Shown here: piece by piece, positions 20,519-30,436 of the stretch
How the letters are laid out: each line of letters opens with the position of its first letter
Position numbering within the stretch: the first letter of the stretch is position 1
Source: a virus
DNA: 64,000 nucleotides
Reading direction: 5' to 3' (one strand)
IMG/VR virus record: IMGVR_UViG_3300037337_000170
Location: 1 to 64,000 of that record
The notes under the pieces: model-generated
The model's input: only the letters and a program-made list of their open reading frames with translations
What the model was told of the DNA's origin: nothing
Database searches by the model: none
Position numbers and translations under genes: made by a program

Positions 20519-21124
20519 ATGGACTACTTTACTTGGACCCCTCTTGAGACTTTTGCGATTGCCTTTACTACTGCATGTATTTTCCTGGCTGGTAAGAACT
20601 CTATTCATACCTGGTGGGTCGGTATTATCGCCTGCGTGCTTTTTGGTACTCTTTTCTACTCAGTTCAACTATACGCCGAAGTTCTACTTCAGGTATTCTT
20701 TGTCGGAACAAGTTTGATCGGTTGGTATATCTGGCGAAAATGTGGAGTAAATGTCACTCCGATTGTCAGAACAAGCCGACAAGTTCTCTTGATTTACTTT
20801 GTTGCGGCTCTATTGGCAGCTGGCGCATACGGATTGATCCTGCATGAATTCACTAACGCATGGGCGCCATTCATTGATAGCGGTGTATTAACCTTCAGTA
20901 TTCTTGCGCAGTATTTGCTAATGACGCGACGGCTGGAAACATGGTACTTTTGGATTTTCGTGAACATTCTATCTGTGCCATTGTACTTCAGTCGAGAACT
21001 TTACATGACTGCTGGTCTGTATTCAGTCTTTTTGGTACACGCTATCTGGGCAGCAGGCCACTGGAAAAAGCAAATGGAGACGCGTTCAAAGGGCGTTGGT
21101 TCGCCGAGGCACATTGAGAAATAA
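20519..21124 (+). CDS. pnuC: nicotinamide riboside transporter PnuC
   Basis: 201 residues with about seven hydrophobic helices and the PnuC hallmarks: TWWVGIIACVLFGTLFYSVQ (tryptophan-rich helix), FVGTSLIGWYIWRK (GWYxW motif) and VNILSVPLYFSRELYMTAGL (the N...PLY segment lining the substrate channel). It brings nicotinamide riboside through the inner membrane; trapping depends on phosphorylation inside. The next gene, 2 bases on, is NadR with a kinase domain, so the pair forms an NAD salvage route as described in vibriophage KVP40. A basic C-terminal tail faces the cytoplasm. Confidence 0.9.
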   Translation: MDYFTWTPLETFAIAFTTACIFLAGKNSIHTWWVGIIACVLFGTLFYSVQLYAEVLLQVFFVGTSLIGWYIWRKCGVNVTPIVRTSRQVLLIYFVAALLAAGAYGLILHEFTNAWAPFIDSGVLTFSILAQYLLMTRRLETWYFWIFVNILSVPLYFSRELYMTAGLYSVFLVHAIWAAGHWKKQMETRSKGVGSPRHIEK

Positions 21125-21126
21125 AA

Positions 21127-22107
21127 ATGTATAAACTTGGGTTAGTTGTTGGAAAATTCTGCCCGCTTCACCTTGGGCACAAGTATGTTATTGATACAGC
21201 CTTTGCTCAGAGTGAAAAAGTAGTAATTATCTCCTACACAAGCAAAAATTACTACCCTGCCGCCAATCGGCGTCTCTGGCTCGCCTCCACGTACCCAAAA
21301 GCAATCGTAATCGTGCCAGAATCTGGGTTCCCTGCCGACAATGCACATGAAGATATTCATCGTCACTATTGTGCTCAGTTATTGCTATCACTAAATCTAG
21401 AACCAGGTGCTGTATTTGGTAGTGAAGATTACATATTGGGCTTTGCAGAATATCTCTGTGGTTACTTTGAAAAAAACGGTGACAGGACCAAAGTTAAGCC
21501 CGTTCTCGTGGACGTAGATAGGCTGCGCTTTCCTATATCGGGAACAGCCATTCGACGTGGTAGTGCGTTAATCGAGGATTGGACTGATCCTATTGTTTAC
21601 ACGACACCAGCAAAGAGAATTTTGTTGATCGGCGGGGAAGCATCAGGAAAAACAACTCTGGCCCGGGCCCTTCTTCGAGCTCGGGGGGCATGGGGAATGG
21701 TAGAGGAATTTGGACGGACCTACGGGGAAGCAACCGATCAGCAATACACATTTTCCTCGATGTCACACATTGCAAAAACCCAGGTTAAGGATGAGGAAAA
21801 TCACATGCTATATTACCAACACACCGTTATTGTGTGTGATACTTCTCCTCTGGTTACCAAGTTTTACAGCCAGAAATGGTTTGGTTCGGTCGATCCTATG
21901 CTAGAGATTCTATCTCTTAGGAAATATGATTATGTATTTCTTACCCATCGAGATTTTGAATACAAACAAGAGATCGGTCGTTCTGGTGTCGAGTTCGCCG
22001 AAGAGCAAGAAACCTTTTATATGAAAAAACTTCGGCAACCATGGACTGATCTTTATGGCACCGTTGCCGAGCGGGTCGCAAAAATTCTAAAGGAAATAAA
22101 ACTATGA
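21127..22107 (+). CDS. nadR: NadR-like NMN adenylyltransferase / NR kinase
   Basis: 326 residues, two domains. The N-terminal nucleotidyltransferase has GKFCPLHLGHKYVI (HxGH at residues 15-18) and the ISGTAIR motif near residue 140 (FPISGTAIRRG); it makes NAD from NMN and ATP. The C-terminal kinase has the P-loop GGEASGKTTLARAL (around residues 165-180) and makes NMN from nicotinamide riboside. The N-terminal helix-turn-helix repressor domain of enterobacterial NadR is missing, so it is the enzymatic part only. With PnuC just upstream it completes NR-to-NAD salvage. Its stop overlaps the next start. Confidence 0.92.
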   Translation: MYKLGLVVGKFCPLHLGHKYVIDTAFAQSEKVVIISYTSKNYYPAANRRLWLASTYPKAIVIVPESGFPADNAHEDIHRHYCAQLLLSLNLEPGAVFGSEDYILGFAEYLCGYFEKNGDRTKVKPVLVDVDRLRFPISGTAIRRGSALIEDWTDPIVYTTPAKRILLIGGEASGKTTLARALLRARGAWGMVEEFGRTYGEATDQQYTFSSMSHIAKTQVKDEENHMLYYQHTVIVCDTSPLVTKFYSQKWFGSVDPMLEILSLRKYDYVFLTHRDFEYKQEIGRSGVEFAEEQETFYMKKLRQPWTDLYGTVAERVAKILKEIKL

Positions 22108-22340
22108 AATCATTGTCATTCCGTATTCTCAACTCTGTAGACCAGGCATCACCATGGGTAATCAAGGAAGTTGAAAAGATGGAAACCTTACTCAAGGAAG
22201 CACATAGCTCGCTGTCTGTATGCACCATCGATGAAAGAAACATTTCCTACGGGCCAGCGTACAGCCTTGCTGTAGAGGACCGCGCGAGAGTGCTAATAAA
22301 GATCCGTAGACAATTTTATACGACAGAGGATAAACAATGA
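22104..22340 (+). CDS. hypothetical protein (78 aa)
   Basis: ATGA overlap with nadR and with the next gene. 78 residues (MKSLSFRILNSVDQASPWVI), mostly helical and charged. Being coupled to the NAD genes it may be co-regulated with them, but no motif hints at a role in NAD metabolism. Confidence 0.68.
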   Translation: MKSLSFRILNSVDQASPWVIKEVEKMETLLKEAHSSLSVCTIDERNISYGPAYSLAVEDRARVLIKIRRQFYTTEDKQ

Positions 22341-22543
22341 ACACAAACTTACAACGCCATGCATTTAATGCAGGAATACGAATTGATGCCTTTGGTTCGC
22401 CGGTGGTGGATCGACAAGAAATGCTAGAAGAATTCGTGAAAAATATTCTGGCCGATCTCGTTGAGGATCTGCCGCGACCGGCAAGTATGCAAGTGACTAT
22501 TTCTGCCCTCAGGTTCGGAATTAAATTGAAAGAAACAAAATGA
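22337..22543 (+). CDS. hypothetical protein (68 aa)
   Basis: Coupled on both sides by ATGA overlaps. 68 residues (MNTNLQRHAFNAGIRIDAFG), helix then strand (MQVTISALRFGIKLKETK). No family recognised. Confidence 0.68.
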   Translation: MNTNLQRHAFNAGIRIDAFGSPVVDRQEMLEEFVKNILADLVEDLPRPASMQVTISALRFGIKLKETK

Positions 22544-22968
22544 AAACTACTACTATTCCCTTTGGTTACCGATTGACAATTATGTCGTGGGAAAATGATG
22601 GCGATAATCACGCAAATAAAACTATATCAGGGCTTGGCTCAGAAATGGCCCATTTCTATGTAGGATTAGCTCAATTGTGTGAAGAAGGATGGGGTAATAT
22701 GTATGACCCAAGTGAACCAGAGCGTGTCGAGTTTAATGCAGCTTGCGTTAAAATGGTTCGTGAGAAATTAGAAGCTTTTAAATTACCTGTTCATTGGAAA
22801 GATTTTGACGATGAAAAAATAAAAGATATGTGTAATGATGCTAAGGATACTTTGGGTTTGGTCAGTTGCGACTACTTCACTCGTGTGACACAGTCTATTC
22901 TAGTCGAATACTTACCAAATACAATTGTGCTTCAAAATGTCACTGATGAATTTTTAGCCGCACCGTAA
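22540..22968 (+). CDS. hypothetical protein (142 aa)
   Basis: 142 residues, ATGA-coupled. Starts MKTTTIPFGYRLTIMSWEND and has EMAHFYVGLAQLCEEGWGN, a pattern of a small soluble alpha/beta protein found as conserved unknowns in large phages. Last gene before promoter cassette 11. Function unknown. Confidence 0.72.
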   Translation: MKTTTIPFGYRLTIMSWENDGDNHANKTISGLGSEMAHFYVGLAQLCEEGWGNMYDPSEPERVEFNAACVKMVREKLEAFKLPVHWKDFDDEKIKDMCNDAKDTLGLVSCDYFTRVTQSILVEYLPNTIVLQNVTDEFLAAP

Positions 22969-22970
22969 AT

Positions 22971-22999
22971 TTTACTTTTATTCTGGTCTGTGGTATAAT
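22971..22999 (+). promoter_or_regulatory. early promoter cassette 11
   Basis: TTTACTTTTATTC, 17-base spacer, TGGTATAAT. Drives 23044 and probably the DNA ligase gene. Confidence 0.9.
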
Positions 23000-23043
23000 A
23001 AATTACGAACAAAAAACCACCCCTTTAATACTTTTAAAATATT

Positions 23044-23394
23044 ATGAAAATTGTGATCAATACCTGCTATGGCGGCTTCGGGCTTTCAATTGAAGCCCTC
23101 TATGAACTCTATTTAAAAGGGTGTCCGATTGTTGAAGATGTGCGCAAACAGGCAGTTGGAGACAATCACACAGACGAAGTGATTCCATTCAATAATTTTT
23201 TGGCATCATTTAGCAATTGCCACGAACTCCGTGGCCACCCTGATTTAATCGAAATCGTAGAGAAATTGGGTGTAAAGGCGAATGATATGCAAGCATGCTT
23301 AAAAGTCGTGGAAATTCCAGATGATGTCGAATGGATTATCACCGATTATGATGGTGTGGAAACAATTGAAGAAGCCCACCGTATTTGGAACTAA
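23044..23394 (+). CDS. conserved phage hypothetical protein (116 aa)
   Basis: 116 residues starting MKIVINTCYGGFGLSIEALY, a start seen in a widespread family of unknown phage proteins. The second half is acidic (DDVEWIITDYDGVETIEEAH). Directly behind promoter 11. The family's function is not established to my knowledge. Confidence 0.78.
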   Translation: MKIVINTCYGGFGLSIEALYELYLKGCPIVEDVRKQAVGDNHTDEVIPFNNFLASFSNCHELRGHPDLIEIVEKLGVKANDMQACLKVVEIPDDVEWIITDYDGVETIEEAHRIWN

Positions 23395-23399
23395 ATAAA

Positions 23400-23615
23400 A
23401 TGCAAAACAAAGAAAATACTCCCGGCTTCGTGCCGGGATTGGATTACTGTGCTCTTAATGTACGAGTGAATTCCTTGCTAATGGAACTGTCCGAAGTTCA
23501 GAATAAGTTTCCTCCGGGAAGCAATACATGGTACGATGCGGCAAATTGCCGATACCAACTCGGTAAAGTACAAGATCACATTCTTCGCGTTCGCGGTATT
23601 CAGGGCAACTCATGA
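23400..23615 (+). CDS. hypothetical protein (71 aa)
   Basis: ATG 23400 (MQNKENTPGFVPGLDYCALN) is preferred over an earlier in-frame TTG. 71 residues with a helical second half (LLMELSEVQNKF). Coupled to ligA by ATGA at 23612. No recognised domain. Confidence 0.62.
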   Translation: MQNKENTPGFVPGLDYCALNVRVNSLLMELSEVQNKFPPGSNTWYDAANCRYQLGKVQDHILRVRGIQGNS

Positions 23616-25474
23616 AAAAAGATCTACAGCTCTACTTCGATGCCAAAAGTGCCTATTACTCCGGCGAGCCTATTCTTTCGGATTACGAGTTTGACACGCT
23701 AGAAGTTGAGTTGGCAAAAACCAACCCCGATATTCTAAAGCGAGTTGGTTTTAATGATCGCACCGGAGCAGAAAAACTACCTGTTATGATGGGCTCTCTG
23801 GATCAACTCCACAATCAAAAAGAATGGGTAAACTGGAAAACTAAATTCCCAGGCGAGCTTGGCTTTGTTATTACCGAAAAAATTGATGGTAACTCTTGTC
23901 TGATGCAATATAAAAATGGAATTCTAGTCAACTCATGGTCACGCGGCGACGGTGTATCAGGCGCATCTAACATTCGACATACAAGCAAAATGCAATTGCC
24001 ACAGTATATAGAAAGCCGGTTCACTGGGTTTATTCGCGGTGAACTTGTAGTTCCTACTGCTGATTGGAAAAATCTACTTTCAGAAGCAGACCGTGATTAT
24101 GCCAATGCCCGCAACTTTGTAGCTGGTTTTCTTAACAAGACAGAAGGTCAAAAAGAACTTTACAAATACTTTGTTTTTGTCGCATTCGAGTTGATTAATG
24201 ACCAAAAGCTTTCAAAGACTCAACAGTTACAATTGATGAACCTCTATGGCTTCGATACACCAGAATACAGCCATATCTCAGAAACTTGTTCTTATGCCGA
24301 TCTGGAAAAGTTCATTAGCAAAATGTTGCAAGATAGTAAATATGAACTAGACGGGCTTGTGGTAGAGGTCGAATCTGCAAAATATCGTATTTTTACCCCT
24401 ACTGAAGATGACCTAAATCCACCATTTTCAGTTAAGATCAAGCTTGTCTCCGAGGGTGTAGAAACCACTATTCGAGAAATTGAGTGGTCTGCATCGAAGG
24501 ACGGTCTACTTAAGCCAGTAGTTCTAATTGAGCCTGTTCAATTAGACGGTGTCACTATTTCAAGATGTACGGCATATAATGCCAAGTTTGTAAAGGATAA
24601 CAAACTTTGTCCAGGGTCTATCATTAAAATTGTTCGCAGTGGGCAAGTAATCCCGAAAATTGTTGGGTTTATCAGTTCCGGTATCGACCTTGAGCTATAC
24701 GATGAATGGTTCTATTCTCAATTTGATGATAATGTAGAGTGGAATGAGACAAAAGTCGATCTAATTCATGCCTCTGGGGCAGGGTTAATGGCTCAGAAAG
24801 TCAAACAACTTGAATACTTTTTTCATAAACTGGAAATCGACTTCGTTGGTCCTGGCGCAGTTTCAAAGTTAATCGAAGCCGGTTACATTGAACCCACACA
24901 AATTATTACTAATCAGTCCATATTGAGAGATGTAATTGGCGAAAATGGTCGTAAGGCAGAACTGATTATGAATAAAATTCTAACCAGTGTAACTCCACAA
25001 CGACTATTCGCAGCACTAGGTGTATTCGGGCGCGGGATGGGTGAGCGAAAACTAAAGGTCCTATTCACTCGATTCTCGGTCGAAGAAGTTCTTGGTGGAA
25101 AACTAACAGAGAGTCAATTGTGCCAACTAGATGGCTTCGATGTCAAATCAGCAAAACTTATTATGCTGAATGCATTTAAAGCCCACACAGTATATTCGCA
25201 GATTAAATCATCGGTTACTTTCACGGTCGATAAACTTGAAACTAAAGGTTCGGGCGCATTCAATAATCAGATTCTGGTTGCTACCGGGGTACGGTTGTCT
25301 CCCGAGTTGATCGAGAAAATTCAGGTCCTAGGCGGTACGGTAACAGATGCATTTAACAAATCAACAACAATGTTGATCGCTAAAGACCCGAGCTCGACTT
25401 CAGGTAAAATGGGAAAGGCCAAAGCTATGGGTATCAAGGTTATTAGTTTGGCACAACTAATGGAGATGTTATGA
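23612..25474 (+). CDS. ligA: NAD-dependent DNA ligase, zinc finger degenerate
   Basis: 620 residues, slightly short for LigA (about 670). Order: Ia NMN-binding domain (YYSGEPILSDYEFDTL, residues 15-30), adenylation domain with nucleophile Lys90 in TEKIDGNSC and motif RGDGVSG, OB domain (PGSIIKIVRSGQVIPKIV), helix-hairpin-helix repeats (FVGPGAVSKLIEAG, FGRGMGERKL) and a C-terminal BRCT domain ending ISLAQLMEML. In the position of the four-cysteine zinc finger (around residues 365-395, EWFYSQFDDNVEW...ASGAGLMAQ) no cysteine remains. It seals nicks using NAD rather than the ATP used by T4 gp30. The NAD salvage genes lie about 1.5 kb upstream. Confidence 0.93.
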   Translation: MKKDLQLYFDAKSAYYSGEPILSDYEFDTLEVELAKTNPDILKRVGFNDRTGAEKLPVMMGSLDQLHNQKEWVNWKTKFPGELGFVITEKIDGNSCLMQYKNGILVNSWSRGDGVSGASNIRHTSKMQLPQYIESRFTGFIRGELVVPTADWKNLLSEADRDYANARNFVAGFLNKTEGQKELYKYFVFVAFELINDQKLSKTQQLQLMNLYGFDTPEYSHISETCSYADLEKFISKMLQDSKYELDGLVVEVESAKYRIFTPTEDDLNPPFSVKIKLVSEGVETTIREIEWSASKDGLLKPVVLIEPVQLDGVTISRCTAYNAKFVKDNKLCPGSIIKIVRSGQVIPKIVGFISSGIDLELYDEWFYSQFDDNVEWNETKVDLIHASGAGLMAQKVKQLEYFFHKLEIDFVGPGAVSKLIEAGYIEPTQIITNQSILRDVIGENGRKAELIMNKILTSVTPQRLFAALGVFGRGMGERKLKVLFTRFSVEEVLGGKLTESQLCQLDGFDVKSAKLIMLNAFKAHTVYSQIKSSVTFTVDKLETKGSGAFNNQILVATGVRLSPELIEKIQVLGGTVTDAFNKSTTMLIAKDPSSTSGKMGKAKAMGIKVISLAQLMEML

Positions 25475-25698: not shown

Positions 25699-26664
25699 AT
25701 GACAGAACCTGTTCAGACAAAATACCCAATTTATGTAATTTCAAAATCCAGAGCCAGTACCTTATGGACTGTTCGTACACTTGAAGAATGCGGCTGCACC
25801 AACTATCGATTGGTAATTGAACCGCATCAATACGAAGATTATAAAGTAGGTATGCTTGAGCGTGGCTTTGATCCTGCTAAACTTCTTCTATTACCTTTCA
25901 GTAACCTAGGGCTTGGTAGTATTCCAGTTAGAAATTGGGTCTGGGAACACTCAATTTCCTTAGGTGCTAAAAGGCATTGGATTCTTGACGATAATATGCG
26001 ATATTTTTATCGGGTATATCGTAATACTCGAATGCGTGTTAAGTCTATGATCGCACTTAAAGTAGCAGAAGATTATAGTGACAGATTCACCAATGTTGCT
26101 ATGAGTGGACTGAACTATCACTTTTTCGTGCCTAATTTTCTAAATAAAGAGCCAGCCTACTTTAATACCAGAATTTACAGCTGTATTCTACTAGACAATA
26201 CCATTGACGAACGCTGGCGTGTACTTGAGTGGGATGGAAAGCCTGCGCCGTTCAATGAGGATACTGATCTATCTTTACAGATTCTGAAAAAAGGTTACTG
26301 TACTATTCTACTAAACTCTTTTACTGTTGGCAAGGCCGGCACACATACAATGAAAGGTGGTAATACTGAAGCAGTTTACAAAGTTGGTAACAAAGAAGAA
26401 TTTGATAATCGGTATTCATTTGTAGCATCACTACATAAAGCACATCCAGATTGTGTAACCATCGCCCAAAAATGGGGGCGTCACCATCATCATGTGGATT
26501 TCAGTCATTTTATGAAACATAATAAATTAATCCTGAAGCCAGGTCTAACTTGGCCAGAAGTCTATGAGCATAAACTAAAACTGGTTAAACTGGATGATCC
26601 AAAAAACATGATGGGATCCTATACTGACGCTACAATATCGGATGTTCGTATTGACTTGGAATAA
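25699..26664 (+). CDS. TAGT/GREB1-like glycosyltransferase
   Basis: 321 residues. PIYVISKSRASTLWTVRTLE at the start, VIEPHQYEDY, and WILDDNMRYFYR (DDN as metal/nucleotide-sugar DxD motif, about residue 97), then FNEDTDLSLQILKKGYCTIL, are the marks of the TET/JBP-associated glycosyltransferase (TAGT) family, related to the C-terminal region of GREB1. In phages this family is predicted to add sugars to modified bases in DNA. Here it is followed by two small paralogous genes and by UDP-sugar dehydrogenase and epimerase genes, which would supply the donor. GGAAACAAAA precedes the ATG. The acceptor is not known. Confidence 0.78.
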   Translation: MTEPVQTKYPIYVISKSRASTLWTVRTLEECGCTNYRLVIEPHQYEDYKVGMLERGFDPAKLLLLPFSNLGLGSIPVRNWVWEHSISLGAKRHWILDDNMRYFYRVYRNTRMRVKSMIALKVAEDYSDRFTNVAMSGLNYHFFVPNFLNKEPAYFNTRIYSCILLDNTIDERWRVLEWDGKPAPFNEDTDLSLQILKKGYCTILLNSFTVGKAGTHTMKGGNTEAVYKVGNKEEFDNRYSFVASLHKAHPDCVTIAQKWGRHHHHVDFSHFMKHNKLILKPGLTWPEVYEHKLKLVKLDDPKNMMGSYTDATISDVRIDLE

Positions 26665-26667
26665 ACT

Positions 26668-26949
26668 ATGACTAATGCCTTATCAGAATATATCGGTGTC
26701 GAGGAAAAACTTGACCCAACCAGTTATCATGCCTTTCCAGAATATGATCAGCCTAAATATGATGCGCCGTATATTTTAGAAATCCAAATGGATACTGAGG
26801 CCGATCTCAAAAAGTTTGTTGAACTGGTTGCTGTTGGCTCTGAGTCAATTCTTGATGATGGAGCTAGATCAGTAAAATGTATCTGGTACCCTAAGTTGTT
26901 TACAGGTGAACGCGGCTCTAATGCTCAGTATATTTGGGTGTTAGTCTAG
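26668..26949 (+). CDS. small 'ADLxKF' domain protein A (93 aa)
   Basis: 93 residues. The core ILEIQMDTEADLKKFVELVA followed by SVKCIWYPK is repeated in the gene at 27033 (MVRFRNKADLDKFADILEIP, then HKIKWSAD). This strand-helix-strand unit with a KxIWYP-like end recurs in phage genomes near DNA-modification genes. Directly after the glycosyltransferase (3-base gap). Function unknown; an accessory role in the modification is an inference from position. Confidence 0.7.
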   Translation: MTNALSEYIGVEEKLDPTSYHAFPEYDQPKYDAPYILEIQMDTEADLKKFVELVAVGSESILDDGARSVKCIWYPKLFTGERGSNAQYIWVLV

Positions 26950-27032
26950 GCTATCTTGCTCACATAAAAATCTAATTCTAATGTGGATTTACCTACCCAA
27001 TTTTCACCTAGAATAACCAATAAGGAAATAAT

Positions 27033-27260
27033 ATGCTATTTGATGAACCAGAAGATAATACTAAACCTTCACCCCATATCGACCGAATGCGTCGTGGCGA
27101 GGGTCGATTTGTTATGGTCCGCTTTCGAAACAAGGCAGACCTGGACAAATTTGCTGATATCCTAGAAATTCCACATATTAAAGCCTTCAAAAAAGGCTCA
27201 CATAAGATTAAATGGTCTGCTGATACTCAGAAAAATAATCCACTAGGCGACTTCATGTAA
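27033..27260 (+). CDS. small 'ADLxKF' domain protein B (75 aa)
   Basis: 75 residues, paralogue of the 26668 product (see FVMVRFRNKADLDKFADIL). Good ribosome site (AAGGAAATAAT). The C-terminus ends NNPLGDFM. The pair probably arose by duplication. Followed at once by promoter cassette 12. Confidence 0.7.
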   Translation: MLFDEPEDNTKPSPHIDRMRRGEGRFVMVRFRNKADLDKFADILEIPHIKAFKKGSHKIKWSADTQKNNPLGDFM

Positions 27261-27261
27261 G

Positions 27262-27290
27262 TTTACTTTTATTCATGAATATGTTACAAT
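27262..27290 (+). promoter_or_regulatory. early promoter cassette 12 (TACAAT)
   Basis: TTTACTTTTATTC, 17-base spacer, -10 TACAAT, without the TGTGG element. A weaker variant. Drives the UDP-sugar dehydrogenase gene at 27315. Confidence 0.82.
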
Positions 27291-27314
27291 GACCCTTTAT
27301 AAAATAGAAATAAC

Positions 27315-28157
27315 ATGAAAAAAAACAACGCAAATATCGGAATCGTGGGCTATGGCTTTGTAGGAAAGGCAATTGCACACGGCTTTATTGGCTGTGATCC
27401 GGTGATTGCCGATCCAGCTTTAGGTACCTCATGTAAAGATTTAGTCGTGGCAAACATTAAGTTTGATGCGATCTTTATCGCAGTTCCTACTCCCATGGGT
27501 GAGGATGGTAAAATTGATTCTAGCATTGTCGAAAAGGTGCTAGAAGAACTTAAGGATCTAGATACCTTATTGGTTCTAAAGTCAACAGTCACACCAGACA
27601 TCATCAAGGTATTGGCAGAAAAATACAGCAATTTTGTGTACAACCCAGAGTTTCTAACTGAAGCCAATGCACTAAAAGATTTTGTAGATCCTATCATGCA
27701 TGTAATGGGTGGTAGTTGGGAAAATTGTAAAGATCTAATGGATATCTACGATGACTATTCGGAGTGTAAAAAAGGCTGTCGAATTCTCTATATGACTGCT
27801 GTTGAGGCTTCGTTTGTAAAATATACAATGAATTCATTCCTAGCAGCCAAGGTCCTGTTCTTTAATCAGATCAACGAATTGTGTTCAAAACATTCTGCTG
27901 ATTATAATAGAGTAATTGAAGCAGTAGGAAATGATCCGCGTATTGGTAAGAGTCATACAATGGTTCCCGGGCCCGATGGGCGGCGCGGCGCCGCCGGCCC
28001 CTGTTTTTCTAAGGACAGTTCGGCATTCATTCACTTTTCAAAAAATAAGTTGAGTATCCTAAGAGAAGCTTGGAACTATAATGTAGATATTCGTAACAAT
28101 TATGGCGAGCCGCTGCCCCGTGAAGTAGAACAACATGTCTCATTCAATAAAATTTAA
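27315..28157 (+). CDS. UDP-glucose/GDP-mannose 6-dehydrogenase-like, short
   Basis: 280 residues. N-terminal Rossmann motif IGIVGYGFVGKAIAHG, VPTPMGEDGKID, VYNPEFLTEANAL, and the catalytic cysteine in GPDGRRGAAGPCFSKD (family: GPGGxCFxKD) identify a nucleotide-sugar 6-dehydrogenase, which makes UDP-glucuronate or a similar uronic acid with two NAD. Usual members are 390-450 residues; the C-terminal UDP-binding domain is largely missing, as in other phage members. A very GC-rich patch (27968-28004) encodes the RRGAAG segment. It would provide a donor for the nearby glycosyltransferase. A terminator follows. Confidence 0.85.
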   Translation: MKKNNANIGIVGYGFVGKAIAHGFIGCDPVIADPALGTSCKDLVVANIKFDAIFIAVPTPMGEDGKIDSSIVEKVLEELKDLDTLLVLKSTVTPDIIKVLAEKYSNFVYNPEFLTEANALKDFVDPIMHVMGGSWENCKDLMDIYDDYSECKKGCRILYMTAVEASFVKYTMNSFLAAKVLFFNQINELCSKHSADYNRVIEAVGNDPRIGKSHTMVPGPDGRRGAAGPCFSKDSSAFIHFSKNKLSILREAWNYNVDIRNNYGEPLPREVEQHVSFNKI

Positions 28158-28179
28158 GATGGTGTGGTAAAAAACAATT

Positions 28180-28197
28180 GCCCTTCGGGGCATTTTT
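28180..28197 (+). terminator. rho-independent terminator
   Basis: GCCC-TTCG-GGGC stem-loop followed by ATTTTT, about 20 bases after the dehydrogenase stop. Confidence 0.85.
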
Positions 28198-28329
28198 AGT
28201 TGGCTTTTGCTATTAATCTATGTACAAAGAGTTACACCGAGTAGGTCAGTGTTTATTTCCCGCCCCCGGTTTCACGATTATAATAGATTATAAAATCAAG
28301 TTGTTCGGTAAGTAAGTTCATATAGCTAA

Positions 28330-28360
28330 GTCTGTGGCTACGTCTAGGATTACCACAGAC
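28330..28360 (+). repeat. inverted repeat abutting promoter 13
   Basis: GTCTGTGG (28330-28337) and CCACAGAC (28353-28360) are perfect 8-base arms with a 15-base spacer, ending exactly where TTTACT of cassette 13 begins. It could be an operator or an attenuator-like hairpin. Nothing else is coding in 28198-28360. Confidence 0.6.
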
Positions 28361-28389
28361 TTTACTTTTATTCTGTAGTGTGTTATAAT
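28361..28389 (+). promoter_or_regulatory. early promoter cassette 13, facing a minus-strand gene
   Basis: TTTACTTTTATTC, 17-base spacer, TATAAT. It is followed by AGGAAAAAATATG and a 5-codon frame (MQLEF, stop) and then runs antisense into the endonuclease gene, whose stop codon lies at 28414. Confidence 0.88.
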
Positions 28390-28413
28390 AATTTTTTAGG
28401 AAAAAATATGCAA

Positions 28414-29451
28414 CTAGAGTTTTAAGTTAGAATACTCTTCTTTTGTTAGAGTATAAAAACCTATGTCTCTATATGTTTTATCCTTAAGTTCTTCAAAGGT
28501 ATAATTTGATAGAAGATATTCTGATCTATTATAAGTTATTTTACATATTTTTCGATCACATTTGACACACCAATATCTAAGTTGCTGTATTATCTTGCCT
28601 GGCTCGAAATTATCTGTGGTATCTGTGATACCAAATGGGGTATGAAACCAGTACTTGAAACTCGGGTTTCTATGACCAATACTTGAGCCAGTCAATTTTT
28701 TAGTTGCTGAAACTTTTGCACCAGTGCCAGCTGGTTTAGGAACCCCTTTAAGGGCTTTAGAGATTTTTAATCTAGAAGCAGGAATCTGTGATACATTTTT
28801 GACACCATATTTTAAAATTATATTTTTCTCAAATTTTAGTTGAATGACTGGTGATTTCATGGCATTGTTAACTCCATACCTTTCTAAATTAGTTTCTTCC
28901 GCTTTTGATTTGAATTCAGGTACCTGAAAAGGATTTTCAAACCCATACCTTTCTAAATTAGTTTCTTCTATTTTTTGTTTAAATTCTGGTACTTGACCCG
29001 GATTTGCAAATCCGTATCTTTTTAAATTGGTTTTCTCAATTTTTTGTTTAGTTGATTGTAATTTCATACCATCTGTAACACCATATTTTTCTAACATTAA
29101 ATCTGAAAAATATTTTGTTCCGAATGCCATATGACCAAAATTGTTGTGTCCATTCAACCAGTCATCTGATCCCGCGCAATCATTCTTCTGAAGAAATAAT
29201 GATTCGTAATCTAGAACATTTATACCACATTCCTCTTTAGTAAGTATCTGAACTACTTCGAATGATTCTAATCCACTGTGTTGTATAAGAGCTTTAACCT
29301 TTGTAGAAGATGTTTGATAGCCATCTTCTGTCATAAAAGTATCTGGATAACAACCAACGGCCCATTTAGCTCCAGCATAAAGTTTTTGAGACTGAATGTG
29401 TCTAATAACATAAAAATATGGAGTGCGCTGATAAATAATTTTGCTGGACAT
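28414..29451 (-). CDS. GIY-YIG homing-type endonuclease with tandem NUMOD-like repeats
   Basis: 345 residues, the only minus-strand gene in 4.0-36.1 kb. N-terminal nuclease: YFYVIRHIQSQKLYAGAKWA is a variant GIY-YIG element (YVI ... LYAG), with LDYESLF holding the glutamate of the family. Then about four tandem repeats of E-x-T-N-L-x-R-Y-G-(F/V)-x-N-x-x-Q-V-P-E-F-K (residues ~120-220), the DNA-binding repeats of phage homing endonucleases. C-terminal KALKGVPKPAG resembles a NUMOD3 segment. It seems to have inserted behind promoter 13, between the dehydrogenase and epimerase genes, whose product pathway it splits. Confidence 0.8.
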   Translation of the reverse strand: MSSKIIYQRTPYFYVIRHIQSQKLYAGAKWAVGCYPDTFMTEDGYQTSSTKVKALIQHSGLESFEVVQILTKEECGINVLDYESLFLQKNDCAGSDDWLNGHNNFGHMAFGTKYFSDLMLEKYGVTDGMKLQSTKQKIEKTNLKRYGFANPGQVPEFKQKIEETNLERYGFENPFQVPEFKSKAEETNLERYGVNNAMKSPVIQLKFEKNIILKYGVKNVSQIPASRLKISKALKGVPKPAGTGAKVSATKKLTGSSIGHRNPSFKYWFHTPFGITDTTDNFEPGKIIQQLRYWCVKCDRKICKITYNRSEYLLSNYTFEELKDKTYRDIGFYTLTKEEYSNLKL

Positions 29452-29509
29452 AGTAGCCTTTCTGGGTTAGTCTAGAGGTGATAGATGTTAGAGCATCGTG
29501 ATCACCATT

Positions 29510-29538
29510 TTTACTTTTATAACAAGATGTGTTATAAT
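29510..29538 (+). promoter_or_regulatory. early promoter cassette 14
   Basis: TTTACTTTTATAA, 17-base spacer, TATAAT at 29533-29538. The TTC of other copies is replaced by AAC. Drives the epimerase gene. Confidence 0.88.
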
Positions 29539-29569
29539 TTATTTATGTAAATTTTATTTTGAAAAACTT

Positions 29570-30436
29570 ATGGAACACATTAAGAATGTACTTTGTCTCG
29601 GTGGAGCCGGTTTCATTGGCTCTAATCTCTGTGCTCGTCTAATATCTGAAGGCCATAATGTTTTAAGTGTGGATAATTATTCTACAGGAACTAGATTAAA
29701 TCATGTTCCTGGTGTTGGGTATTGCAATATAAACACAAAGGATATTCATGATCTTGAGTTTAAACCAGACTTGATATTTCACCTAGCGGAATATGCCAGA
29801 GTCGAGCAATCATTCAGTGATATGCGAACTGTATGGGATTCTAATTCAACTGGCACATTTGAAGTCTTAGAATATGCCCTTAAACATAATGCCAAACTCG
29901 TGTATGCTGGATCATCAACTAAGTTTGGTGATATTGGGGCCAATTCTTCTCCATACGCATTTACAAAAGCGAAAAATACTGAATTGGTAAAAAATTACGG
30001 TTCTTGGTATGGTCTAAAATATGCTATTACCTACTTCTATAATGTGGTAGGTAAGAATGAGATTGCAGATGGTAAATATGCCACTGTGATTGCAAAGTTT
30101 GCCAAACTATACTCAGAAGGTAAATCTTTACCAGTTACATTACCAGGAACTCAAAAACGAAACTTCACCCATGTGGACGATATTGTCGATGGGTTGATTC
30201 TAGTTGGGGCCCATGGTTACGGAGATGGATATGGTATCGGTGCACCTGAAGCATATTCTATTATTGAAATCGCGGATATGTTTGGTCTCGATATTGATTA
30301 TCAGCCCGAGGTTCGTGGTAATAGAATGGCTGCAGAACTAATGACTACCCTGACCGAGGAGTTAGGTTGGAGTGCTAAACGTAGCATTAAGGATTATATT
30401 GCTCGACTAGTCGCAAAGGATTTTGATAATGTCTGA
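29570..30436 (+). CDS. NAD-dependent nucleotide-sugar epimerase/dehydratase
   Basis: The frame is open from 29498, but ATG 29570 (MEHIKNVLCLGGAGFIGSNL) lies after the promoter start and at the expected family N-terminus, giving 288 residues. GGAGFIGSNL is the GxxGxxG NAD site; SSPYAFTKAKNTEL has the Y-x3-K catalytic pair, with the serine motif in VYAGSSTKFG. This is an extended short-chain dehydrogenase of the UDP-glucose 4-epimerase type. With the 6-dehydrogenase upstream it can produce an epimerised uronic acid donor (for example galacturonate) for the TAGT glycosyltransferase. Exact reaction is inferred. Confidence 0.85.
   Translation: MEHIKNVLCLGGAGFIGSNLCARLISEGHNVLSVDNYSTGTRLNHVPGVGYCNINTKDIHDLEFKPDLIFHLAEYARVEQSFSDMRTVWDSNSTGTFEVLEYALKHNAKLVYAGSSTKFGDIGANSSPYAFTKAKNTELVKNYGSWYGLKYAITYFYNVVGKNEIADGKYATVIAKFAKLYSEGKSLPVTLPGTQKRNFTHVDDIVDGLILVGAHGYGDGYGIGAPEAYSIIEIADMFGLDIDYQPEVRGNRMAAELMTTLTEELGWSAKRSIKDYIARLVAKDFDNV

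What the first reader, a model, noticed from the sequence alone, without database searches (positions are those of the whole stretch)
25699..30436. Candidate sugar hypermodification island
A TAGT/GREB1-like glycosyltransferase, two small paralogous proteins, a nucleotide-sugar 6-dehydrogenase and an epimerase lie close together under early promoters. TAGT enzymes are predicted to decorate modified bases; the other two could make a uronic-acid-type donor. No known base hydroxylase or hydroxymethylase is in the window, so the acceptor (DNA, RNA or protein) is open. This is the best candidate for an undescribed system here.
Basis: partly seen in the sequence, partly recalled or inferred. Interest (0 to 1): 0.8.

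Follow-up and report, generated by a model that had tools for sequence, protein, structure and literature searches.

The report
Phage cassette likely sugar-coating its DNA
A virus of bacteria related to phage T4 carries a compact set of genes that probably makes an unusual sugar and attaches it to the virus's own DNA as armour, yet neither it nor its relatives show any known enzyme that would prepare the DNA to receive the sugar.

Summary
In a T4-superfamily phage record (128,647 bp), 25699-30436 encodes a TAGT glycosyltransferase, two small paralogues (P2, P3), a UDP-glucose dehydrogenase (UGD) and an SDR-type nucleotide-sugar enzyme. In many relatives TAGT-P2 plus UGD/SDR lie between DNA polymerase gp43 and uvsX, where T4 keeps gp42/beta-GT and T6 keeps gp42/Ggt. 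T6 Ggt, named as a glucosyl-HMC glucosyltransferase, is itself a TAGT. P2 is a consistent partner: fused or adjacent in 57 of 64 distinct TAGT groups, and elsewhere fused to ParB_N. Three different SDRs, never two at one locus, accompany UGD: UDP-xylose synthase, a UDP-GlcA 4-epimerase-like type, and the window's type. TAGT's closest clade uses UDP-xylose synthase, so the window's lineage probably changed sugar. Best reading: DNA-base glycosylation with a UDP-glucuronate-derived sugar. No thymidylate-synthase-family enzyme or TET was found in this record or in 75 environmental records carrying the TAGT, and no C5-methyltransferase in 18 tested. The acceptor base and its synthesis are open. No biochemistry was done.

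The parts
25699..26664 (+). TAGT glycosyltransferase (PF20691), 321 aa, GT-A-type fold, motifs LDDN (96-99) and NEDTD (186-190)
   Evidence: Pfam E 1.1e-27; motif residues invariant or nearly so in 35 homologues; AlphaFold2 pLDDT 83 with distant GT-A matches such as ColGalT1 and SpsA
26668..26949 (+). P2, 93-aa TAGT-partner domain, no Pfam family
   Evidence: Fused or adjacent to TAGT in 57 of 64 distinct groups; fused to ParB_N upstream of TAGT in other phages; dN/dS 0.08
27033..27260 (+). P3, 75-aa paralogue of P2
   Evidence: Found by the iterated P2 search; a second P2-type gene is also present in the nearest relatives L089-L091
27262..27290 (+). Early-promoter-like motif (2 mismatches) before UGD
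27315..28157 (+). Short UDP-glucose 6-dehydrogenase, 280 aa: NAD and central domains with catalytic Thr/Glu/Lys/Asn/Cys/Asp motifs, no C-terminal UDP-binding domain
   Evidence: Pfam and NCBIfam, solved UGD relatives, residue conservation in 26 short and 16 long homologues
28361..28389 (+). Early promoter of the original SDR start, stranded by the insertion
28414..29451 (-). Homing-endonuclease-like gene (DUF7487 / phrog_3339), a mobile insertion not part of the pathway
   Evidence: absent from G002 and L009
29510..29538 (+). Early-promoter motif driving the re-started SDR
29570..30436 (+). Type-A extended SDR (nucleotide-sugar epimerase-like), 288 aa, motif GSSTKFG ... SPYAFTK; true start 29570
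   Evidence: PF01370 E 4e-40; 54% identical to the SDR beside UGD in Kuja; alignment of the three SDR types

Best explanation
The island is a DNA-glycosylation cassette. (1) UGD oxidises host UDP-glucose to UDP-glucuronate (inferred from family and intact catalytic residues). (2) The type-A SDR converts UDP-glucuronate into the final donor, most simply UDP-galacturonate by C4 epimerisation; it lacks the Glu that marks the decarboxylases (inferred; the product is uncertain). (3) The GT-A-type TAGT, helped by the P2/P3 domain proteins that probably position it on DNA or on the replisome (inferred), transfers that sugar to a base of replicating phage DNA. This would shield the DNA from restriction and similar defences, as glucosyl-hmC does in T4 and gentiobiosyl-hmC in T6. 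Swapping the SDR changes the sugar while TAGT and UGD stay, so related phages carry alternative sugars such as xylose. Which base is the acceptor, and what prepares it, is not known: no known acceptor-making enzyme was found.
For: TAGT membership; T6 Ggt, named as a glucosyl-HMC glucosyltransferase, is a TAGT lying between gp42 and uvsX (PMC13390438). TAGT-P2-(UGD/SDR) lies between gp43 and uvsX, or in the gp44-gp62 operon, in many T4-superfamily phages, the slot of T4 gp42/beta-GT. P2 fused or adjacent in 57 of 64 groups, and P2 also fused to ParB_N beside TAGT and terminase. One UGD and one SDR of three types per locus, never two types; type B is a strong UDP-GlcA decarboxylase (E 1e-104 to human UXS1), and the nearest TAGT relatives of the window carry type B. 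The long UGD beside type-A SDRs matches UDP-glucose 6-dehydrogenase at E 1e-153. UGD catalytic residues kept. Purifying selection on all five genes.
Against: No enzyme known to create a hydroxylated base (TS family, TET/JBP, C5-methyltransferase, ThyX, PF13640) was found in the record. The short UGD lacks the C-terminal UDP-sugar-binding domain of classical enzymes. The type-A SDR matches no characterised specificity closely. In the window the island is not in the replication module but among other early genes. Some TAGT-P2 loci carry no UGD or SDR within the DNA seen. No biochemical data.
Confidence: 0.6

Rival explanations
1. Ordinary T4/T6-type pathway: the phage does make hmC (or 5-hydroxycytosine) with a TS-family enzyme that lies in sequence missing from this record, and TAGT simply decorates it.
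For: The record is linear without end repeats, so it may lack some kilobases; a 97%-identical contig extends 12.5 kb beyond its left end and carries genes of dNTP metabolism. Eight of ten named TAGT phages have a TS-family gene or a TET.
Against: The T4-type replication genes found in the record are many (gp41, gp43, gp44, gp45, gp46/47, uvsX, primase, SSB) and none of the neighbours is a TS. The extra 12.5 kb has no TS either. No TS in 75 viral records with this TAGT, including ones of 334, 192, 121, 97, 93 and 93 kb.
Confidence: 0.18
2. TAGT glycosylates a protein or an envelope or receptor glycan (capsid, tail, terminase partner or host surface), and UGD/SDR feed that reaction.
For: UGD and SDR genes are common in capsule and LPS synthesis (general knowledge). 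In small phages TAGT lies beside terminase and portal genes, and Flavobacterium phage immuto has a related SDR in a large glycan cluster. GREB1, a eukaryotic TAGT relative, is discussed as a protein O-GlcNAc enzyme (from memory).
Against: In T4-like phages the module sits inside the early replication operon, not with virion genes; P2 is fused to ParB_N domains beside TAGT, and from memory such phage ParB_N domains are often fused to DNA methyltransferases; T6 Ggt is described as acting on DNA (PMC13390438).
Confidence: 0.12
3. UGD and SDR are auxiliary host-sugar genes unrelated to TAGT, merely neighbours.
For: Many phages carry UGD or SDR genes in other contexts, and many TAGT-P2 loci have neither within the DNA seen.
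Against: UGD plus one SDR of type A or B recurs in 24 TAGT loci (14 A/long, 7 A/short, 3 B/short; near-duplicate contigs counted) and a third SDR type beside UGD in 13 more, in different gene orders and with unrelated SDR types; an SDR also lies beside TAGT in non-T4 phages (L048, L053).
Confidence: 0.07

Closest known systems
T6 (and T2) Ggt, beta-glucosyl-HMC-alpha-glucosyltransferase, and the gentiobiosyl-hmC pathway
   Same: Same Pfam family (PF20691), same genomic slot between gp43/gp42 and uvsX
   Different: T6 has gp42 and alpha-GT, uses UDP-glucose, and has no UGD, SDR or P2 in that slot; the sequences are very distant
T4 hmC glucosylation (gp42 + beta-GT/alpha-GT)
   Same: DNA modification genes embedded between gp43 and uvsX, with a homing endonuclease (segA) nearby
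   Different: T4 beta-GT is not found by the TAGT profile; no gp42 homologue here; a phage-made donor instead of host UDP-glucose
Mosigvirus/RB69 arabinosylated 5-hydroxycytosine
   Same: T4-like phage with its own nucleotide-sugar genes (PMC6024577, PMC13390438)
   Different: Different glycosyltransferase (GT-B predicted) and different sugar route; needs a TS-family 5-hodCMP synthase, absent here
TET/JBP-TAGT cassettes such as Nonlabens phage P12024L
   Same: TAGT family member in a DNA-modification cluster
   Different: TET next to TAGT there, none here; that TAGT is only about 23-25% identical
SP-15 hypermodified uracil carrying phosphoglucuronate and glucose
   Same: Phage UGD thought to feed a uronic-acid DNA decoration (PMC5977210)
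   Different: Dihydroxypentyluracil acceptor; different transferases; the SP-15 UGD is only 29% identical
Vibrio phage Kuja (Ackermannviridae)
   Same: Two tandem TAGTs elsewhere in the genome plus adjacent UGD and a 54%-identical type-A SDR
   Different: Has a TS-family gene, the long UGD, and TAGT not beside UGD/SDR

Membership tests
TAGT glycosyltransferases (PF20691) | Profile match over the curated cut-off with catalytic acidic motifs | tested here: met
   97.7 bits against a cut-off of 27.5; W94, D97, E187, D188, T189, D190 invariant in 35 rows
TET-associated DNA glycosylation cassette | TET/JBP dioxygenase in the genome | tested here: not met
   PF12851 no match in the record or in 75 environmental records; positive controls W04 and W11 matched
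TET-associated DNA glycosylation cassette | C5-cytosine methyltransferase supplying 5mC | tested here: not met
   PF00145 no match in the record or 20 other records
T4/T6 hmC glycosylation | dCMP hydroxymethylase (gp42, TS superfamily) | tested here: not met
   PF00303 no match at E 10 in the record; T4 gp42 tblastn no hit
T4/T6 hmC glycosylation | Genes between gp43 and uvsX | tested here: inconclusive
   Met in many relatives but not in the window phage, where gp43 is followed by a Dam-type methyltransferase and uvsX
Mosigvirus arabinosyl-5hoC pathway | TS-family 5-hodCMP synthase | tested here: not met
   PF00303 no match
UDP-glucose 6-dehydrogenase | NAD-binding and central domains with catalytic Cys and Lys | tested here: met
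UDP-glucose 6-dehydrogenase | C-terminal UDP-binding domain (PF03720) | tested here: not met
   No match in the 280-aa protein; also absent from short homologue L089
UDP-xylose synthase (UXS) | STSEVYG ... YDEGKR signature and closest match to UXS | tested here: not met
   The window SDR has GSSTKFG/SPYAFTK; the signature is met in L088-L090
UDP-glucuronate 4-epimerase | Closest match to characterised 4-epimerases; product UDP-GalA | tested here: inconclusive
   The window SDR is equally distant from GalE, UXS and dehydratases at about 1e-21

The most novel reading that the evidence does not exclude
TAGT plus its P2 partner is a self-sufficient DNA-glycosylation system that does not use a TS-family, TET-made or 5mC-derived hydroxylated pyrimidine: either it glycosylates a canonical base directly (for example at an exocyclic amine) or an unrecognised enzyme makes the acceptor. 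Phages then vary the sugar (xylose, galacturonate, glucose) by swapping one SDR gene.
Probability: 0.25. Interest if true: 0.88.

Novelty: new variant of a known kind. Interest (0 to 1): 0.62.

Why it matters
Phage DNA sugars decide whether restriction and CRISPR-type defences work, and each new sugar or base chemistry has given new enzymes. This family, found in dozens of environmental lineages, links a TAGT to a previously unnamed partner domain and to exchangeable donor-sugar genes. It predicts xylosylated and uronic-acid-bearing phage DNA, and it points to an acceptor-making step that no known enzyme explains. PMC13390438 reports a similar open puzzle in Krischvirus SAP, whose DNA is glucosylated without a known hmC synthase.

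Tried and rejected
Acceptor-making enzymes: PF00303, PF12851, PF02511, PF00145 and PF13640 by profile in the record and T4 gp42, Kuja TS and C48C1 TET by tblastn: nothing. A loose HxD..H..R motif scan gave only hits in unrelated proteins. The intervening 308-aa gene c3 was considered as acceptor maker and dropped: no Pfam match, primase-like by eye, and in C48C1 a gene annotated DNA primase holds the same place. The P2 structure prediction failed (pLDDT 49), so no fold is claimed. The TAGT-to-PDB sequence search gave nothing; fold comparison gave only distant GT-A relatives (TM about 0.4). The idea that the window's UGD/SDR pair is a unique chimera was dropped: short UGD with type-A SDR recurs in L097, L108 and L120. 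The Nonlabens TAGT scan returned too few TET-associated loci for a clade test, and that row is too long-branched for the tree. A scan of bacterial genomes gave 13 metagenome-assembled loci, not pursued. The key paper on 5-hydroxycytosine biosynthesis is not held.
Full report
WHAT IS THERE. The window is part of a 128,647-bp virus record. The record carries a T4-superfamily replication set: gp43, gp44, gp45, gp46/47, gp55, uvsX, gp41, primase, SSB, CobS-type and nrdA/B genes. At 25699-30436 the + strand encodes a TAGT glycosyltransferase (PF20691, E 1e-27; phrog_842), two small proteins without Pfam families (P2, P3), a UDP-glucose dehydrogenase and an SDR of the epimerase family. All five are under purifying selection between this phage and contig L009 (dN/dS 0.05-0.18). 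Contigs G002 (97% nucleotide identity) and L009 carry TAGT-P2-P3-UGD-SDR without interruption.

THE INTERRUPTION. In this record a homing-endonuclease-like gene (28414-29451, minus) lies at the start of the SDR. The old promoter and first codons (28361-28415) are stranded before it. The SDR restarts at 29570 under another copy of the phage's early promoter, with its first residues replaced. The true SDR is therefore 288 aa. Seventeen copies of the promoter motif occur in the window against 0.01 expected. None lies directly before TAGT, so TAGT probably reads from an upstream promoter (inference).

CONTEXT IN RELATIVES. Relatives of the TAGT were fetched from viral contigs. In many T4-superfamily contigs the order is gp43 - TAGT - P2 - (methyltransferase, second TAGT or GT4) - primase-like - UGD/SDR - uvsX - gp41 (for example L012, L014, L016, L020, L022, L026, L028, L029, L031, L102, L108, L115, L165; not every contig reaches both ends). 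In L036, L039 and L041 TAGT-P2 sits between gp44 and gp62, and in L089/L090 TAGT-P2-P3-SDR-UGD sits just before gp45/gp44. In T4 the stretch between gp43 and uvsX holds gp42 and beta-GT; in T6 it holds gp42 and Ggt. T6 Ggt passes the PF20691 cut-off, and a 2026 paper describes it as the TAGT likely adding the second glucose of gentiobiosyl-hmC (PMC13390438). In the window phage the island has left this slot; gp43 is followed by a Dam-type methyltransferase and uvsX.

THE PARTNER DOMAIN. Among 124 loci in 64 distinct groups (85% identity), P2 is fused to TAGT in 6 groups and adjacent in 51. P2 is also inside the longer TAGT proteins of Aeh1, 65, POP12, AS5, PTm1, 1.076.O and 1.124.O. In a second context TAGT follows a ParB_N-P2 protein and precedes the large terminase gene (L042, L046, L053, L048). 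P2 is thus a steady physical partner of TAGT. I infer that it recruits TAGT to DNA; its structure prediction failed.

THE DONOR. Within the fetched DNA a locus has one UGD and one SDR. Three SDR types occur and never two together. Type B is a UDP-glucuronate decarboxylase (UDP-xylose synthase): signature STSEVYG...YDEGKR, E 1e-104 to human UXS1 against 1e-38 for the next family. Type C is closest to a solved SDR deposited as a dTDP-glucose dehydratase (5u4q), then to 6zl6 and MoeE5, which from memory are UDP-GlcA 4-epimerases. Type A, the window's, lacks the decarboxylase Glu and matches no specificity closely; it goes with either the long UGD (E 1e-153 to UDP-glucose 6-dehydrogenase) or the short one, which keeps all catalytic motifs but lacks the C-terminal domain. 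In the TAGT tree the window falls in a clade (SH-aLRT 100) with L088-L091, all with type B. The likely history is that the window's lineage exchanged UXS for a type-A SDR, that is, changed the sugar (inference). UDP-galacturonate is my best guess for the product.

THE MISSING ACCEPTOR STEP. PF00303 (which covers hmC, hmU and 5hoC synthases and TS) and PF12851 (TET/JBP) gave no match in the record, in the 12.5 kb added by G002, or in the other environmental records with this TAGT: 26 (G002 among them) and 49, together about 2.6 Mb by my sum. Among the large ones are 334, 192, 121, 97, 93 and 93 kb. PF00145 gave none in 21 records and PF13640 none in 14. By contrast eight of ten named phages with a TAGT have a TS-family gene or a TET, although at least Aeh1's is an ordinary-looking TS. 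Many environmental records are fragments, so absence in each is weak; absence across all is the notable part.

HOW IT MOST LIKELY WORKS. UDP-glucose to UDP-glucuronate (UGD), to a modified UDP-sugar (SDR), then transfer to phage DNA by TAGT with P2. Shown by computation: family membership, intact active-site motifs, conserved module, synteny, partner fusion, SDR exchange. Inferred: each reaction, the DNA target, protection from host nucleases. Unknown: the acceptor base.

LIMITS. No laboratory data; host unknown; the record may be incomplete; the type-A product is uncertain; contexts were sampled by similarity to this TAGT and so favour its kin; locus counts for SDR types include near-duplicate contigs.

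Noticed in passing
window 28361-29600: A homing-endonuclease-like gene inserted exactly at the SDR start, stranding the old promoter and start codon and giving the SDR a new promoter and first codons; intact versions exist in G002 and L009.
   Followed up: yes
L055 (phage C48C1) 19042-20942 and 33299-36746: C48C1 has SDR-UGD in its replication cluster plus a TET/JBP protein, an unknown 344-aa protein and a UDP-galactopyranose mutase in a row, suggesting a furanose sugar on TET-oxidised DNA.
   Followed up: partly
L042:3279-4946: A 555-aa protein that by eye joins a capsular-type GT-A glycosyltransferase region, ParB_N and the P2 domain in one chain directly before TAGT.
   Followed up: partly
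L048:2196-3953 (also L047, L049) and L014:11258-12046: TAGT fused to, or followed by, a SAM-dependent methyltransferase, possibly O-methylating the DNA sugar; other loci (L029, L031) add a GT4-type glycosyltransferase and L024/L028 a second TAGT, hinting at sugar chains on DNA.
   Followed up: partly
window 20519-25474: PnuC-like transporter, NadR-like NMN adenylyltransferase/kinase and an NAD-dependent DNA ligase lie together: an NAD salvage set next to the island, which itself uses NAD.
   Followed up: no
record G000 85323-85877 (L003:1323-1877): Protein matching the anti-CBASS family Acb1 (Pfam E 5.8e-9).
   Followed up: no
window 4688-31308, 17 sites: Strict early-promoter motif TTTACTTTTAT-N7-TGTGNTATAAT, often followed by a conserved AACACATACCAACC leader.
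   Followed up: partly
record G000 125647-126282: Protein with a DNA/RNA non-specific endonuclease domain (PF01223) and an apparent signal peptide in a phage genome.
   Followed up: no
L018, L022, L089, L090 and others, directly upstream of TAGT: A MazG/PRA-PH-like gene precedes TAGT in about 12 of 64 groups, possibly a dNTP pyrophosphatase tied to base modification; G002 carries a weak homologue elsewhere.
   Followed up: partly
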